Shown one piece after another: positions 11,825 through 43,178 of a DNA stretch of 56,023 nucleotides; the first letter of the stretch is position 1; every line of letters starts with the position of its first letter. Below the pieces are notes generated by a model that was not told the origin of the DNA, did not search any database, and saw only the letters and a list, made by a program, of their open reading frames with translations. This stretch comes from Candidatus Gastranaerophilales bacterium (GTDB lineage Bacteria > Cyanobacteriota > Vampirovibrionia > Gastranaerophilales > Gastranaerophilaceae): the NCBI GenBank assembly GCA_944326605.1, contig CALVEM010000014.1:1-56023 (forward strand). The letters are read 5' to 3'. Made by a program: the position numbers and the translations under genes.

Positions 11825-12915
11825 TAGTTCATTTCCCATCCGTCATTTAAAATTTTCCCGAAACACCCCCACCAATATGAAGCTGATGTCCCGTTAACAC
11901 AGTAAGCTTCATATATTTCTTCTCTTTTTTCTTTTGTTAAAGGCGCAGTCAAAGTTTCATTTCCTTCAGAGCCGTTACTTTCATCAATTATTCCGTTTTT
12001 ATAAAGTAAAAGAGGAAAAATATCACGTCCTACAATATTAGGACCTTTCCGTCCGTTAGTATCGACATACAAGGTTGTTTTAGCGTTTGTTCTCCCAAGA
12101 ACTGCTATTGATGCACCGCTAGCAAGTACAAATGTGTGCATTTCTGCAGGAATTAATTGCCCTTTAGACGCTCCGTTCATCAATTTATATTCATCTGCAA
12201 AACAAGGAGAATGATCCGTGCCGCAATCATTTACAACTTTAAAATAAGTTTTAATCCAATCAGCAGCGGCATCGGTAGATGTTAACCCTGCCTCTTTCAA
12301 ATCTATAGCATTTTTATCGGTAATATATTGAAGCGCAGCCTGCTGGGCTTCATTATAAATTTTATGCAACTGCGTTACAAAAACTTTACGCTGGTGGTTT
12401 TGCATCAATGTCGGGACTGTCATTGCAGAAACAACACCAATAATGCCGAGTGTGACGAGAACCTCTGCGAGAGTAAAGGCAGCTTTTTTATAAGGTGAAT
12501 AAGTGAATAGGTTAATATGTGAATAAGTTCGTTTCAGGAAAATATTAATGTCATCCTGAACTCGTTTCAGGATCTCTTGAAAGCCAGATTGACCTTTGTG
12601 TTTCTGCTTCTCGTGAGATCCCACCCGCATTGGGACATTTTGCTCGAAATCATAAATTTCGGCAAAAGCAGTCAAACAAAGTTCGGGATGACAGATTGCT
12701 AATTTATTATTGATATTAGCTTTGCATCTATACCTCTTAGCATCTTTGCTTCTTGTTAATAGATCCTGAAATAAATTCAGGATGACATAAATGATACTTG
12801 CTTTGCTTCTTTGCCTCTTAGCATCTTCGCATCTGATTGCGTCTTTGCTTCCGGCGGAGCCTACAGCCCCCCCCCCCCCCCCGAAGCTCCGAAAGTTTTC
12901 AATCAATCTTTTCAT
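11821..12915 (-). CDS. Phase-variable prepilin-type protein, locus 1 (frame open, G16)
   Basis: Reading from the ATG at 12915 (AAGGAG ribosome-binding site about 9 nt upstream), the 364-residue product starts [12 protein letters not shown] poly-G tract then encodes five glycines, a long basic repeat-derived leader follows, and the prepilin signature [18 protein letters not shown] has its conserved Phe at 147 and Glu at 151. Type IV prepilin leaders are normally under 30 residues, so 146 is exceptional. The mature part has one hydrophobic helix, a globular domain and cysteines suitable for disulfides ([16 protein letters not shown]). PilD-type cleavage would release it into a pilus or secretion pseudopilus. 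No ATG with a ribosome-binding site lies near the prepilin signature, which supports the upstream start. Loci 2 and 3 share the layout. Confidence 0.8.
12550..12692. repeat. Dispersed palindromic repeat, copy in prepilin locus 1
   Basis: This is an element bounded by GTCATCC and GGATGAC that contains small hairpins (TCCTGAACTCGTTTCAGGA and an AGTTCGGGATGAC arm). The same element occurs at 31387-31478 and 42949-43040; this copy is about 50 bp longer. A further half-palindrome (gatcctgaaataaattcagg) lies at about 12763-12782. All are read through in frame by the prepilin gene. Confidence 0.8.
12867..12882. repeat. Homopolymer C16/G16 tract at the start of prepilin locus 1
   Basis: Sixteen consecutive C on the plus strand, or G in the coding direction, begin 12 codons into the gene. 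With 16 G the frame continues into the prepilin. Confidence 0.9.
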
Positions 12916-20663: not shown

Positions 20664-20694
20664 AAAATCCCTCTTTTAAGAGGGATTTTTTATT
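20664..20694. terminator. Bidirectional terminator between convergent genes
   Basis: AAAATCCCTCTT / AAGAGGGATTTT forms a perfect hairpin flanked by A- and T-rich tracts, serving both the gene at 19944-20663 and clpB. Confidence 0.9.
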
Positions 20695-23290
20695 ATGCTT
20701 TTTTGAAAACAATTTCGTCATTATCAACATCAATTATGACCTTGTCGCCTCGCAGGAACTTTTGAGCAAGAATTTGTTTTGACAGAGGGTTCTCGATTAA
20801 CTGTCTTATAACACGTTTCAATGGTCTTGCACCGTACACAGGATTAAAACCGCGTGTGGCAAGGAATTCTTTAGCATCATCGGTTATTTCAAAGTCAATT
20901 TCCTGATCTTTTAACAATTTTCTCAGATAATCCATTTGAATATCAACAATTTTTGTCAAATCCTGCATATTCAATGCTCTGAAGAAGATTGTTTCATCAA
21001 TTCTGTTCAAAAATTCAGGTTTGAACCTGCTTCTTAGAACTTCCAGAACCTTTTCCTTTGTGTCTTCAAAGTTCTGTTTAGAGCCTATAGAATTCAAGGT
21101 ATTTTCAAGAATTATATCGCTTCCGATATTTGATGTCATAATAATCAATGTATTTTTGAAATCGACTGTTCTTCCTTTTGAATCTGTCAAACGACCGTCA
21201 TCAAAAATTTGAAGCATAATATTGAAAACATCAGGGTGAGCCTTTTCAATTTCATCAAAAAGAACGACAGAATATGGTTTACGTCTGACAGCTTCCGTTA
21301 ACTGACCGCCCTCATCGTAGCCGACATATCCCGGAGGTGCGCCGACTAACCTTGAAACATTATGCTTTTCCATATATTCAGACATATCAATACGTATAAG
21401 CGCATCTTCATCGTTGAACATAAATTCCGCGAGAGATTTTGCAAGTTCAGTTTTGCCGACACCTGTCGGTCCTAAGAATAAGAAGGTACCTATTGGACGT
21501 TTCGGGTCTTTCAAGCCTGAACGGGCTCGGCGGATTGCATCGGCGACAGTATCAACAGCCTCTTCCTGACCGACAAGACGTTTATGAAGAATTTCTTCCA
21601 TATTAAGAAGCTTTTGTTTTTCGCTTTCCACAAGTTTGTTAACCGGAATACCTGTCCACTTGCTTACGACATTTGCAATATCTTCATCATCTATTTCTTC
21701 TTTCAGCAGTTTATTATCTGTTTTTTCTTTATTCTGAACAGCTTTTAACTGCTTTTCAAGTTCAAGCAGTTTTCCATACTTTAATTCAGCAGCAGTCTGC
21801 AAATCAGTATTACGCTCAGCTTCTTCTATTTTATTTTTAACTTTTTCGATTTCTTCTTTAATGCCTGCCTCACCTGTAATTGAAGCTTTTTCCTGCTCCC
21901 ACTGAGTTTTTAATTTGCCGATTTTACCTTCCAATTCATCTATCTGCTTTGACAAATCAGCAACTTTAGCTTTTGCATCTTCATCATCTTCTTTTTTGAG
22001 CGCTTCACGTTCAATTTCAAGCTGAATTTTTTGACGCATCATTTTATCAATCTCTTCAGGCATTGAATCAATTTCAATACGCAAAGATGAAGCAGCTTCA
22101 TCAATCAAATCTATTGCTTTATCAGGTAAAAATCTGTCTGTAATATATCTGTCAGACAATTTCGCGGCAGCAATCAGGGCGCTGTCAAGTATTCTAATTC
22201 CATGGTGAACTTCGTATTTTTCTTTCAAACCTCTGAGGATAGAAATTGTATCTTCAACAGACGGTTCTCCGACCATAACAGGCTGGAAACGTCTTTCTAA
22301 AGCAGGATCTTTTTCAATATATTTGCGGTATTCGTTAATTGTTGTCGCGCCGATAGTTCTCAATACACCTCTTGCGAGCATAGGTTTCAAAAGGTTGCCT
22401 GCATCCATTGAGCCTTCTGTCGCACCGGCACCGACTACTGTATGAAGTTCATCTATAAACATTACAATCTCGCCGTTTGAATCTTCAACTTCTTTTAATA
22501 CAGCTTTCAAACGTTCTTCAAATTCGCCTCTGAATTTTGCACCTGCAACAAGAGCGCCCATGTCAAGAGAAACAAGTTTGACATCTTTCAAACTTTCCGG
22601 TACATCTCCCCTTACAATACGCTGAGCAAGACCTTCAACTATAGCGGTTTTACCGACGCCCGGCTCACCGATTAAAACAGGGTTGTTTTTTGTTCGTCTG
22701 TTCAAAACCTGAATAATCCTTCTGACCTCTTCATCTCTGCCGATTACAGGATCTAATTTTCCTTTTCTGGCAAGAGCTGTCAAGTCTGTTGAATATTTTT
22801 CAAGCGCTTTCATATTTTCTTCAGCATTTTTATTATCCACTTTTTTATTACCTCTTATTTTTTTCATTACATTCAAAACTTTATTTGTATCCACGTTGTA
22901 ATTTCTCAATAGCAGTTGAATAGGGCTGTTATCAAGTTTTGTCATGGCAAGAAGAATTGATTCCGCGCTTATAAATTCGTCCTTAAATTCTTCTGCCTGC
23001 TGTCCTGCAAGATCCAGCAGTCTGTATGTCTGCGTTGACAAAAATACCTGCCCCGAAGGCGGACCCGAAATTGTCGGAAAAGAATTTACGACAGAAACAA
23101 TTTTATTTATAAATCCTTGCTCCAATAGCTTTAATTCTGTTAAATAATCTTTTATTGCGCCGTTATCTTTAATCATAGCAAGCATTATATGTTCCGGCTG
23201 CATCTCAGAATTTCTGTGTTCCTGCATAATTGCTCCTGCAGAATTCAAAAGTTCCTGAGAATAATTGGTAAACTTCTCAAAATTTGGCAT
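20693..23290 (-). CDS. clpB: ATP-dependent disaggregase ClpB
   Basis: An 865-residue Hsp100 chaperone that threads aggregated proteins through a hexameric pore together with DnaK. The layout is complete: N-terminal Clp_N repeats (1-145), AAA1 with Walker [19 protein letters not shown], the coiled-coil M-domain at about 405-525 (Glu/Lys-rich), AAA2 with [17 protein letters not shown], and the C-terminal domain with [16 protein letters not shown]. The start at 23290 (MPNFEKFTN) has an AAAGGAG site 9 nt upstream. An in-frame TTG 9 nt earlier is less likely. No HrcA/CIRCE operator is visible upstream. Confidence 0.96.
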
Positions 23291-23299
23291 ACACGTCAA

Positions 23300-23591
23300 C
23301 TCCTTTAATAAAAATATATTATATTATCATTTTAACGTTATTTTTCAAAAAGTCATTGAAATTAATGTTTAATTAATAATTAATTGTTTATATTGACAAA
23401 ATATAATAATAGAGAAGCTTTGCCCCCCCCCATTTTGTAAGAATACCGGACAACTCGCTTCACACGCCACTCTTCACTAAAATAAAATAATAAATTTAAG
23501 TTCTATAGTTACTCAAATAATGAGCACAACAAAAATACTTTTTTAAGATATTGTTGACAATGCGGTGCCATTATTTAGGATGACTGGAAAA
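23300..23591. other. Gene-free spacer with a C9 tract
   Basis: A 290-nt AT-rich spacer upstream of clpB. It contains nine C at 23423-23431, which on the minus strand directly follow an AT pair to form ATGGGGGGGGG, and a GC-richer segment at 23440-23475 that looks like a dispersed repeat. No ribosome-binding site or sustained reading frame follows the tract. The clpB promoter probably lies at 23320-23360 (TATAAT-like runs). Confidence 0.5.
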
Positions 23592-29079: not shown

Positions 29080-30468
29080 TTAGGCTAAAGCCATTTTTTC
29101 TTTAATAGTCTGAGCGGATTCTTCATAACCTGCTCTCCCCATTAAAGCATAAGTATAATTTTTTGCCTGTTCAACACCCGGCTGGTTGAATGCGTCAATA
29201 TTATAAAGTTCACCTGTTATTGCTGTTTGAACTTCAAGCATATAAAGAAGCTGAGCAACGTTATAACCATCAACTTTTTCAAGTGTAATCGTAACATTAG
29301 GTCTTTGTAAATCGGAAAGAACAACTTTTGTGGAATCAGCTTCCGCATTAATTAGCTGATTAATTGTTTTTCCGCCCAGATAACCGATACCTGTATATTC
29401 AAAAATCTGAGGGATTTCAAGATTATTATCAAATTCTTTTACACGTACGAAATTAATAAGCTTGTTATTTGGTCCCTCGTTATATAACTGAATTTGAGAA
29501 TGCTGATCTGTAGCGCCTAAAGCCTTAACAGGAGTAGGCCCTACACAAACGTCATTTCCTTGCTTATCTTTATTTTTTCCTAAAGATTCTGCCCATAATT
29601 GCGCATACCAGTCTGAGACATACTTTAATCTGCTTGAATAAGGCATCATAACAGACATATTTTTCCCTTTTTGAGTATCCATAAGATAATGGATCAAAGC
29701 ATTTTGCGCCGCAATATTTTCATTTATATCAGTATTTTTTAACGCAAGATCCATATCCTTAATACCGTTTGTAATTTCATCAATATCAATACCCACCAGA
29801 GCAAACGGTAAAAGTCCGACTGCTGAAAATACAGAAAATCTTCCGCCCACATCGTCAGGAACAACAAAAGTTTTATATCCTTCCTGCTCTGCAATCTGTC
29901 TTAAAATACCTGTTTTTTTATCTGTGGTTGCAACTACATTATAACGGTAATTATCTCCGAGTTCTTTTTCCAGACGATCTTTAACAATCATAAACTGAGA
30001 CATTGTTTCAGCTGTGGAACCGGATTTTGTAATAACATTCACAAGAGTTTTCCGCAAATCAAGTATATCCAGCAGCCCTGTCATAGTATCAGGATCAATA
30101 TTATCAAGAAAGAAAATTCTGGGTAATCCGTTTCTCTGTTCCGGAGTAAGAAAATTCCAGTAAGGTTTCAAAAGAGCTTCCGTCACTGCTAATCCGCCAA
30201 GAGCAGAACCACCTATACCAAGCACCAGAATATTATCAAATCTCCCCTGAACCATTGATGCATATTCTTTAACATACCATAAAGTTTCTTCGCTGTAACC
30301 TAAATTCATCCACTGAAGCCACTGCCCCGGCTTATCTTTTCGTTTGTTCAAATCTGCAATAATTGAGGTAATTTTGTCTTTATAATTTGCAAACTCTTGT
30401 TGAATATCTAACCCGTTCTCGCACCCGATAACACTTTGCTCTATATTCCGGTAGTCTAAAGTTATCAT
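29080..30468 (-). CDS. pgi: Glucose-6-phosphate isomerase Pgi
   Basis: A 462-residue SIS-fold enzyme interconverting glucose-6-phosphate and fructose-6-phosphate in glycolysis. It has ILVLGIGGSALGG near residue 80, VITKSGSTAETMSQF, the VGGRFSVFSAVGLLP signature and the TDQHSQIQLYNEGP segment with the catalytic His. The start at 30468 (MITLDYRNIEQ) has an AAGGAG site 7 nt upstream; an in-frame start 42 nt earlier is less likely. It heads the operon with the exported protein and trxB. Confidence 0.95.
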   Translation of the reverse strand: MITLDYRNIEQSVIGCENGLDIQQEFANYKDKITSIIADLNKRKDKPGQWLQWMNLGYSEETLWYVKEYASMVQGRFDNILVLGIGGSALGGLAVTEALLKPYWNFLTPEQRNGLPRIFFLDNIDPDTMTGLLDILDLRKTLVNVITKSGSTAETMSQFMIVKDRLEKELGDNYRYNVVATTDKKTGILRQIAEQEGYKTFVVPDDVGGRFSVFSAVGLLPFALVGIDIDEITNGIKDMDLALKNTDINENIAAQNALIHYLMDTQKGKNMSVMMPYSSRLKYVSDWYAQLWAESLGKNKDKQGNDVCVGPTPVKALGATDQHSQIQLYNEGPNNKLINFVRVKEFDNNLEIPQIFEYTGIGYLGGKTINQLINAEADSTKVVLSDLQRPNVTITLEKVDGYNVAQLLYMLEVQTAITGELYNIDAFNQPGVEQAKNYTYALMGRAGYEESAQTIKEKMALA

Positions 30469-30591
30469 CTGTACTCCTTCTCCAAATAACCTTAATTTAA
30501 ATAAGTACACCTAACAGACTTATTATACGTACTAAAGGAATTTTCACAATAGCATTAATGATTTTTTAATAATTATTTACTATTTAAAAAC

Positions 30592-31607
30592 TTACTTTAG
30601 GCTTTCATCACCTGATTTTACAATGAGCGAAGAAATTGCATTTTTCCACTCATCTAATGTTAAATTCCTATGCAGATAATCCATATTGCCGGTTGAAATT
30701 ACCCATAAGGAACACCCGCCGCCCTTCCACCAGCTGCCCGTTCTGACAGGGGAACAATACACACTACCAGACATCCACCATTTTGCAAAACCTGATATGA
30801 CAGGATAATTATTTTTACTGTTCAACGTGATATAAAAATAATCTTTTCCCAGTTGATTAGGACCTTTTAAGCCATTTGTATCAACCTGTAACAACGGCAT
30901 ATTTAAATCACCATCATAACCGATACCAATTATTGTTCCGTCATTCATGACAAACTTATAATTAGTTGTTGGGAAAGCATTGTTTGATTTAATCTCACTA
31001 CCGTCAATATCCGTATAGGTTACTTGATATAAAATATCAGGACGATCAAAGCCCCAGATTTCTACAACCTTTAAATATGGCGACAGAATATCAAAATACG
31101 TTTTCGCGCAGTCAGTATTTTTTGCAGGACACCACGTACTTGCTATTCCGTTTTCTTGATAAGCACCTAAATATGCCTGATACAAAACGGAATACGTTCT
31201 TTTAAAAGAAGTTAACCAAGACCTTTCCTGATATTTCGAAATCAAAACTGGTAATGTCATGGCTGCGACTACGCCAATGATGCCGAGGGTGATTAAAATC
31301 TCAGCTAAGGTAAAGGCGGCTTTTTTATAAGGTGAATAAGTGAATAGGTTAATAAGTGAATAAGTTCGTTTCAGGAAAATATTAATGTCATCCTGAACTC
31401 GTTTCAGGATCTCTTGAACGTCGGATTGACATCCAAGTTTCAGCATCTCTTGAGATCCCGAACCAAGTTCGGGATGACAGATTGCTAATTTATTATTGAT
31501 ATTAGCTTTGCTTCTTTGCCTCTTTGCATCTTCGCTTCTAATTGCGTCTTTGCCTACGGCGGAGCCTACAGTGCCCCCCCCCCGAAGGTGTCAAAATTCT
31601 TTAACAT
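30592..31607 (-). CDS. Phase-variable prepilin-type protein, locus 2 (frame closed, G10)
   Basis: An ATG at 31607 with an AAAGGAG site 8 nt upstream encodes MLKNFDTF followed by a G10 tract. In the sequenced state the frame ends in TAG after GGGAL, so the prepilin is not reached. Adding one G, or losing two, joins this start to the long downstream frame. That frame carries the repeat-derived leader and then [20 protein letters not shown] and a 215-residue pilin domain with paired cysteines (STWCPAKNTDC, SVYC, GGGC). The continuous frame without the leader opens at 31446 with a poor internal ATG. Its mature part is nearly identical to locus 3 except for one loop and the C-terminus. Confidence 0.75.
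31387..31478. repeat. Dispersed palindromic repeat, copy in prepilin locus 2
   Basis: A 92-bp element bounded by GTCATCC and GGATGAC containing the hairpins TCCTGAACTCGTTTCAGGA and CCCGAACCAAGTTCGGG. It matches 42949-43040 closely and lies inside the coding leader of the prepilin gene. Confidence 0.85.
31574..31583. repeat. Homopolymer C10/G10 tract at the start of prepilin locus 2
   Basis: Ten consecutive C on the plus strand, read as G in the gene, begin after eight leader codons. With 10 G the frame meets TAG immediately after the tract. Confidence 0.9.
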
Positions 31608-31691
31608 ATAAGCTTCTCCTTTCAATATTAATATTGTTTTTATTATAAACTATTTTTTTTATCTTTTCAAGATTATAATTAGATTTTGAGA

Positions 31692-31706
31692 TATAATTTG
31701 ATTATG
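31692..31706 (+). promoter_or_regulatory. Leaderless-type promoter of ribF
   Basis: A perfect TATAAT at 31692-31697 is followed by six bases (TTGATT) and the ATG at 31704. No ribosome-binding site is present. Confidence 0.55.
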
Positions 31707-32582
31707 CAGATATTAACAGATCTTATTAAAAATTCCAATTTATCATTGGCACTCGGTTTTTTTGACGGAATTCACAAAGGTCATCAAACCGTTATACAAA
31801 ATGCTGTTGATTATGCACATAAAAATAACTGCAAATCTGCCGTGATAACTTTTAAGGAACACCCCTGCTGTTTCTTCTATGGCAAATGTCCGAAATACAT
31901 CCTCTCAGGGAAAGAAAGAGAAAACAAAATTAAAGAACTCGGAGTTGATTATCTATATGAACTTGATTTTGAAAGCATCTCTGGGCTAACCGCCGGAGAC
32001 TATTTAAAAAATGTACTGGTAAAATATTTCAGTCCCTGTGCAATTTCAACCGGATGGAACCATAATTTCGGTTATAAAAAAAGCGGAAATGCAAAATTTT
32101 TGCACGATAATTCAAAAAAATTCGGGTATGAATACTTTGAACTTCCTCCTCAAAAAATAAATAATGAAATAATCAGCAGTTCTGCTATCAGAAAATATTT
32201 ATCAACAGGGAATATAGAAAAAGCTAACACAATGCTCGGATACAAATTTTATACTTCAGGCACAGTAATAAAAGGACAGCAAATAGGGAGAACTATTGGT
32301 TTTAAAACAGCAAACCTTATTTATCCTGATGAATTAATCGAACTACCGCACGGAGTTTATTCTGTTGAAACAAATTTCGGCAAAGGGATTGCAAATTTTG
32401 GCACCAGACCTACCGTAAACGGTGATGGAACGCTTTTAGAAGTACATATACTTGACTTTGATAAAGATATTTACGGAGAAACTTTATCTGTAGAGTTCAA
32501 AAAAATGATACGCACAGAGAAAAAATTCCCTTCTCTCGACGCACTCAAAAAACAAATTTACAATGATATAATACAGATCTAA
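31704..32582 (+). CDS. ribF: Bifunctional riboflavin kinase/FAD synthetase RibF
   Basis: A 292-residue cytosolic enzyme that phosphorylates riboflavin to FMN and adenylates FMN to FAD. The N-terminal nucleotidyltransferase domain has LALGFFDGIHKGHQ, the family G-x-F-D-G-x-H-x-G-H motif, and ISSSAIRKYL. The C-terminal kinase domain has GRTIGFKTANL with the conserved P-T-A-N position read here as K-T-A-N, then GVYSVE and GIANFGTRPTV. The start is set at 31704 because TATAAT lies 6 nt upstream, consistent with a leaderless transcript. Confidence 0.93.
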   Translation: MQILTDLIKNSNLSLALGFFDGIHKGHQTVIQNAVDYAHKNNCKSAVITFKEHPCCFFYGKCPKYILSGKERENKIKELGVDYLYELDFESISGLTAGDYLKNVLVKYFSPCAISTGWNHNFGYKKSGNAKFLHDNSKKFGYEYFELPPQKINNEIISSSAIRKYLSTGNIEKANTMLGYKFYTSGTVIKGQQIGRTIGFKTANLIYPDELIELPHGVYSVETNFGKGIANFGTRPTVNGDGTLLEVHILDFDKDIYGETLSVEFKKMIRTEKKFPSLDALKKQIYNDIIQI

Positions 32583-42153: not shown

Positions 42154-43178
42154 TTTATCTAATGAATCTTTATTCAAATCGACAAGTAAATTCTTTACTG
42201 CATTGCTCCATTCATCTAATGTTAAATTCCTATGCAAATAGTCCATATTGCCGGTTGAAATTACCCATAAGGAACACCCGCCGCCGCTCCACCAACCGCT
42301 TTGCGTTGTATTTGTGCAATAAATACTCCAAGACATCCACACTTTTGCAAAACCTGATATGACAGGATAATTGTTTTTACTATTTAATGAAAAATAAAAA
42401 TAATCTTTACCCAGTTGATTAGGACCTTTTAAGCCATTCGTATCAACCTGCAACAACGGCATATTTAAATCACCATCATAACCGATACCAATTATTGTTC
42501 CGTCATTCAAAACAAACTTATAATGAGTTGTTGGGAAAGCATTGTTTGATTTAATTTCGCTACCATCAAGATCTTTATAGGTTACTTGATATAAAATATC
42601 AGGTCGATCAAAGCCCCAAATTTCTACAACCTTTAAATGAGGTGACAGAATATCAAAATAAGTTTTGGCACAGTCACTATTTTTTGCAGGACACCAGGTA
42701 CTTGCTACTCCGTTTTCCTGATATGCACCTAAATATGCCTGATACAAAACAGAATAAGTTCTTTTAAAAGAAGTTAACCAAGACCTTTCCTGATATTTTG
42801 AAATCAACACAGGTAATGTCATTGCTGCTACTACACCGATTATCCCGAGGGTGATTAAAACCTCTGCAAGAGTAAACGCTGGGCGTTTACGAGGAGAATA
42901 AGGAAATAAGTGAATAGGTGAATAAGTTCGTTTCAAAAAGTTATTCTCGTCATCCTGAACTTGTTTCAGGATCTCTTGAACGTCAGATTGACCTCCGTAT
43001 TGCTGCTTCTCTTGAGATCCCGAACCAAGTTCGGGATGACAGATTGCTAATTTATTATTGATTACAGCTTCGCATCTTTGCATCTTAACGTCTGTGCATC
43101 TAATTGCGTCTTTGCCTACGGCGGAGCCTACAGTGCCCCCCCCCCGAAGCTCCGGAATTTTTCATTTAATCTTTTCAT
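42151..43178 (-). CDS. Phase-variable prepilin-type protein, locus 3 (frame closed, G10)
   Basis: From the ATG at 43178 (AAGGATG-type site upstream) the leader reads MKRLNEKFRSF, followed by a G10 tract. The sequenced frame stops at TAG after GGGAL. One added G would continue through the repeat-derived leader into [19 protein letters not shown] and a pilin domain of about 220 residues. The open frame alone begins with a poorly supported ATG at 43083. The mature protein matches locus 2 for most of its length and differs mainly in the segment AKVWMSWSIYCTNTTQSGWW (against AKWWMSGSVYCSPVRTGSWW in locus 2) and in the last 20 residues. Confidence 0.75.
42949..43040. repeat. Dispersed palindromic repeat, copy in prepilin locus 3
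   Basis: A 92-bp element bounded by GTCATCC and GGATGAC, nearly identical to 31387-31478, with the same two internal hairpins. It is in frame with the downstream prepilin. Confidence 0.85.
43136..43145. repeat. Homopolymer C10/G10 tract at the start of prepilin locus 3
   Basis: Ten C on the plus strand start after eleven leader codons on the minus strand. The flanking bases (CTTC before, CACTGTAGGCTCC after, coding strand) equal those of locus 2. Confidence 0.9.

What the first reader, a model, noticed from the sequence alone, without database searches (positions are those of the whole stretch)
31574..31607. Prepilin locus 2: same layout, but G10 places it out of frame
The start at 31607 with an AAAGGAG site reads eight codons, then 10 G, then GCA CTG TAG. 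The distance to the prepilin stop is 1016 nt, one short of a multiple of three. G11 (or G8) exactly restores the frame through the leader and prepilin, so this looks like an OFF allele.
Basis: seen in the sequence. Interest (0 to 1): 0.75.

Follow-up and report, generated by a model that had tools for sequence, protein, structure and literature searches.

The report
Default-off slippage switches on pilins
In this uncultured gut bacterium about sixty pilus-protein genes each carry a run of about ten Gs that leaves the gene one base out of frame, so that a chance gain or loss of one G should switch a pilin on; the site asked about is one of these, and the same arrangement recurs across related genera.

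Summary
It is not an isolated OFF allele. The genome has about 85 G tracts of 9 or more, 71 of them exactly G10. In loci with at least 40 codons between tract and pilin, the frame reached by re-phasing is stop-free in 44/44 and the two other frames in 0/88. Yet 59 of 63 clean pilin loci are OFF as assembled, while six non-pilin genes with G10 are all in frame, so the tracts are not simply miscounted. Nine genomes of four genera give 23 ON and 251 OFF, although modal length (9, 10, 11 or 12-13) and the change needed (+1 or -1) differ by lineage. The G strand is the leading strand, switching near dnaN in three genomes. Best explanation: a large replication-slippage (phase-variation) repertoire of type IV prepilins held OFF by default, giving sparse random expression. 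Expression and within-population variation could not be tested. The kind is known; the scale, the OFF default and the strand polarity look new.

The parts
31616..31622 (-). Shine-Dalgarno AAAGGAG
   Evidence: read in sequence
31605..31607 (-). ATG start of the leader reading frame
31574..31583 (-). G10 tract, the slippage switch (OFF; ON at 8 or 11)
31315..31573 (-). long leader after the tract, built of dispersed repeats, stop-free only in the re-phased frame
31273..31314 (-). prepilin N-methylation motif FTLAEILITLGIIG (cleavage expected just before F)
30592..31314 (-). mature type IV pilin-like protein (end of ORF 30592-31446)
43136..43145 (-). locus 1: G10 tract, ATG 43178-43176, prepilin ORF ends 42151; OFF, ON at 11
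12867..12882 (-). third window locus: G16 tract, ATG 12915-12913, prepilin ORF ends 11821; ON as assembled

Best explanation
The G10 run at 31574-31583 is a contingency locus: replication slippage changes its length, and only 8, 11, 14... Gs join the ribosome-binding site, ATG and leader to the type IV prepilin. At G10 translation meets a stop at codon 14 and no pilin is made (OFF). It is one of about 60 such switches in this genome. Tract length is held near a lineage-typical value, and the downstream frames lie one base away from it, so that most pilins are OFF in most cells and each cell should express a small random subset. Shown: tract, frames, OFF bias, lineage-specific lengths, leading-strand polarity, paralogues differing in tract length. 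Inferred: slippage within populations, loss of pilin at G10, random subsets, surface-diversity function.
For: Frames: stop-free 44/44 in the re-phased frame, 0/88 in the two other frames. State: 4 ON / 59 OFF in this genome; 23 ON / 251 OFF in nine genomes of four genera. Control in the same assembly: six non-pilin genes with G10 (L023, L024, L028, L033, L038, L039) are in frame at G10; against about 1 ON / 55 OFF pilins at G10, Fisher 1.1e-7 (nominal, loci are related). Length changes faster than flanks: L008 (G10) and L057 (G11) are 99.6% identical over 245 nt after the tract; L022 (G9) and L004 (G10) 100% over 80 nt. Both G-type and C-type leaders obey the rule. A published precedent exists for a G-tract slippage switch on pili of a gut commensal (PMC9187656).
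Against: Only assembled consensus sequences were available, so the length mixture in any one population is unknown. No expression data. Tracts are unusually uniform (56 of 58 at G10 in G015), tighter than expected for freely drifting switches unless slippage has a strong restoring bias. A few relatives have an SD-ATG just before the pilin motif.
Confidence: 0.8

Rival explanations
1. Constitutive recoding: RNA polymerase slips on the G/C run, or the ribosome shifts frame there, so that a steady small share of product is in frame and the DNA length is not a switch.
For: OFF-by-one is nearly universal and lengths are very uniform; X XXY YYZ-like slippery runs are present.
Against: A fixed-direction ribosomal shift cannot serve all lineages: G000, G015, G013, G060 and G128 need +1 base, G082 and G025 need -1. 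ON alleles exist in most genomes, and paralogues differ in length. Transcriptional slippage is described mainly for A/T runs (PMC5084427 citing Wagner 1990).
Confidence: 0.1
2. The pilin is translated from an internal start after the tract; the tract and upstream ORF are irrelevant or a leader peptide.
For: Some relatives (L213, L228, L231, L236) have SD-ATG immediately before the motif.
Against: Only 6 of 63 loci here have an internal SD-ATG; long leaders are stop-free only in the frame joined through the tract; 10 loci leave fewer than 15 codons.
Confidence: 0.05
3. Assembly or sequencing artefact: true tracts are G11 and were undercalled.
For: Homopolymers are error-prone; all data are consensus assemblies of unknown technology.
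Against: Six non-pilin genes would then be broken; other lineages have modes 9, 11 and 12-13 yet are OFF too; G11 and G16 are called in the same assembly.
Confidence: 0.03
4. Decaying pseudogene family, frameshifted by drift.
For: Most copies are out of frame.
Against: No stops in the re-phased frame of 44 long leaders; breaks lie only at the tract, by one base; SD and ATG kept.
Confidence: 0.02

Closest known systems
Bifidobacterium breve UCC2003 G-tract switch on sortase-dependent pili (bbr_0113, bbr_1889; PMC9187656)
   Same: Gut commensal, pilin subunit, G tract of about 10-12 splitting start ORF from body ORF, mostly OFF, one-base slip turns ON, lengths shown to vary in the population
   Different: Sortase/LPXTG pili, two loci; here type IV prepilins (N-methyl motif), about 60 loci, G-type and C-type leaders, leading-strand polarity, four genera
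Poly-G/C contingency loci of Campylobacter jejuni and Neisseria
   Same: Pure G/C tracts of 8-12 in coding frames of surface genes; rates favour insertion at G8-G9 and deletion at G10-G11 (PMC4085013, PMC8224891), a plausible reason for a mode near 9-10
   Different: Tens of different genes in mixed ON/OFF states; here mainly one pilin family, overwhelmingly OFF
Mycoplasma gallisepticum vlhA repertoire, (GAA)12 required for full expression (PMC6258824)
   Same: Large paralogous surface family, most members OFF because the repeat number is not the permissive one
   Different: Trinucleotide repeat in promoters acting on transcription; here an in-frame homopolymer acting on translation

Membership tests
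Homopolymeric contingency (phase-variable) locus | Pure homopolymer of 8 or more inside a coding frame, far beyond chance | tested here: met
Homopolymeric contingency (phase-variable) locus | Length modulo 3 decides whether one long ORF is joined | tested here: met
   44/44 against 0/88
Homopolymeric contingency (phase-variable) locus | Length varies between closely related copies | tested here: met
   G10/G11 with 99.6% identical flanks, G9/G10 with 100%
Homopolymeric contingency (phase-variable) locus | Length varies within one population and switches expression | not testable with these tools
   no reads, transcripts or proteins
Type IV prepilin | N-terminal methylation motif with E at position 5 | tested here: met
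   N_methyl E 1.2e-4; FTLAEILITLGIIG
Type IV prepilin | Cleaved by prepilin peptidase and assembled | not testable with these tools
   no assay; pilus machinery of this genome was not searched
B. breve-type sortase pilus switch | LPXTG sortase-dependent pilin | tested here: not met
   the only Pfam family found is N_methyl; it works like this switch but is not a member
Programmed -1 ribosomal frameshift | One fixed shift direction restores the frame in all members | tested here: not met
   G082 and G025 need the opposite change

The most novel reading that the evidence does not exclude
A whole family of about 60 type IV prepilins is kept OFF-by-one at a lineage-set tract length, with the tracts oriented G on the leading strand, so that replication-strand-dependent slippage makes each cell display a sparse random set of pilins. 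Frames have been re-tuned in each lineage to keep OFF as the default.
Probability: 0.5. Interest if true: 0.8.

Novelty: new variant of a known kind. Interest (0 to 1): 0.68.

Why it matters
It would make an uncultured gut lineage (Gastranaerophilales/Melainabacteria, as relatives are named) the holder of one of the larger phase-variable surface repertoires, with a built-in OFF default and a replication-strand rule that can be tested in existing metagenome reads. It also means that annotation pipelines miss or truncate most of its pilins. No paper in the library links this order with phase variation.

Tried and rejected
A genome contigs pattern scan mostly returned unrelated G runs, but named several Gastranaerophilales/Melainabacteria MAGs. 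dnaA as origin marker was rejected: it lies at C1:231 kb without a strand switch; dnaN lies at the switch. Local GC skew over 2 kb steps was too noisy to place the origin. Considered and rejected: assembly undercall, fixed -1 frameshift, internal start, pseudogene (see rivals). The non-pilin comparison in relatives (17 ON / 12 OFF) is mixed and was not used as support; in G025 non-pilin tracts are 3 ON / 3 OFF. p-values are nominal because loci are paralogues. The calling script takes the SD-ATG upstream of the tract; a few loci (L056) are ambiguous. An automatic tally misfiled L033 as a pilin and left L023 unassigned; these were settled by the ORF table.

Full report
What is there. On the minus strand a Shine-Dalgarno AAAGGAG (31622-31616) precedes ATG 31607, eight codons, G10 (31583-31574) and GCA CTG TAG. 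Adding one G (or removing two) opens a frame of 97 codons into FTLAEILITLGIIG, and the body carries the Pfam N_methyl motif. The locus lies between a riboflavin kinase/FAD synthetase gene (31686-32582, +) and a phosphoglucose isomerase gene (29080-30510, -).

It is one of many. The whole genome (2.05 Mb, 26 contigs) holds 88 runs of 9 or more Gs. After removal of duplicates, 85 tracts are G10 in 71, G9 in 10, G11 in 2, G12 and G16 once each. Sixty-five have a prepilin motif within 900 nt. Two leader classes occur: G in the coding strand (MKRLLE...SFGGGG) and C in the coding strand (MFNREALSCPPPQQDKD...). Both need 11 (or 8) bases to be in frame.

The frame is under constraint. In loci with at least 40 codons between tract and motif, the frame reached by re-phasing is stop-free in 44/44; the two others in 0/88. 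Upstream starts have a strong SD in 58/63; an internal SD-ATG occurs in 6/63; 10 loci leave fewer than 15 codons for any internal start. So the upstream ATG is very probably the start, and the tract decides.

OFF is the rule. Among 63 clean loci here 4 are ON and 59 OFF, 51 of them needing exactly +1. In the same assembly six non-pilin genes with G10 (glycosyltransferase-like L023, L028 and L038, radical-SAM-like L024, and L033 and L039; names from reading the translations, not from a family search) are in frame at G10. This argues against systematic undercalling. Fisher on 1/55 against 6/0 gives 1.1e-7; nominal, since pilin loci are related.

It holds across lineages. Exact-length counts in 117 genomes of the order show sharp, lineage-specific modes: 10 in most genomes of the own genus (G011: 0/169/6 for G9/G10/G11), 9 in genus g5 (G128: 48/14/3), 11 in g3 (G082: 9/12/53). 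The required length moves as well: g5 needs 10, g3 mostly needs 10 or 13, and G025 has pilin tracts of 12, 13 and 16, all one base off. Summed over nine genomes of four genera: 23 ON, 251 OFF; six of the nine lie below one third at nominal p < 0.02. G028 is the exception (3 ON, 5 OFF). Because some lineages need +1 and others -1, a fixed-direction ribosomal frameshift cannot be the general answer.

Polarity. Within contigs the G strand is the same in 69 of 71 neighbouring tract pairs, although pilin genes lie on both strands (41 with, 22 against the G strand). The minus-to-plus switch brackets dnaN in G000 (C9: tracts at 13.3 and 25.6 kb, dnaN at 18.0-18.7 kb), G013 (C1: 35 and 212 kb, dnaN 48-49 kb) and G015 (C1: 176 and 349 kb, dnaN 313 kb). 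GC skew has the sign of the tract strand in most contig groups, window included (-0.092; C18 and C20 disagree). So the G strand is the leading strand, if dnaN marks the origin (as I recall for cyanobacteria; not tested). G082 does not show this polarity.

How it most likely works. Slippage during replication adds or removes a G. In C. jejuni insertion prevails at G8-G9 and deletion at G10-G11 (PMC4085013 and PMC8224891), which would hold tracts near a fixed length; a lineage-specific set point could do the same here. With pilin frames one base away, most cells keep most pilins OFF, and rare slips switch single pilins ON. Near-identical paralogues with different lengths show that lengths change faster than the flanks. 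Within-population variation, expression and function are inferred.

Comparison. The closest described case is the B. breve pilus switch (PMC9187656); vlhA of M. gallisepticum is the closest mostly-OFF repertoire (PMC6258824). A search for this order with phase variation found no paper; the library holds only open-licence papers, so novelty is provisional.

Limits. Consensus assemblies only, sequencing technology unknown; loci are paralogues; ON/OFF calls rest on a script that takes the SD-ATG upstream of each tract.

Noticed in passing
window 23423-23431: A G9 tract about 120 nt upstream of an ORF that reads like ClpB (20693-23299; not family-searched), without a leader ATG; perhaps a decayed leader.
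   Followed up: partly
G000 C1-C23, G013, G015: G tracts point the same way within a replichore, whatever the gene orientation, switching near dnaN and once more far from it.
   Followed up: yes
window 31573-31315 and about 45 similar leaders: Leaders are built of dispersed repeats (e.g. CATCCCGAACTTGGTTCGGGATCTCAAGAG palindromes), nearly all within 900 nt of a tract and kept open in one frame; reminiscent of palindromic elements inserted in ORFs.
   Followed up: partly
G003, G022, G024, G004 (same genus): Few or no G tracts although G004 has at least 37 pilin matches; switching seems to have been lost or never gained in some species.
   Followed up: no
G025 C4:51.9-79.9 kb (L495-L505): A run of tracts of 9-15 in what look like surface polysaccharide genes, with mixed ON/OFF states; this genome also has long tracts (12-16) on its pilins.
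   Followed up: partly
L386 and L396 (G082 contig ends): G40 and G52 runs at contig ends, probably assembly or sequencing artefacts.
   Followed up: no
window 30592-31446 and 42160-42999: The two window pilins are 85% identical, with further copies at 81-82% in C1 and C17: recent family expansion.
   Followed up: no
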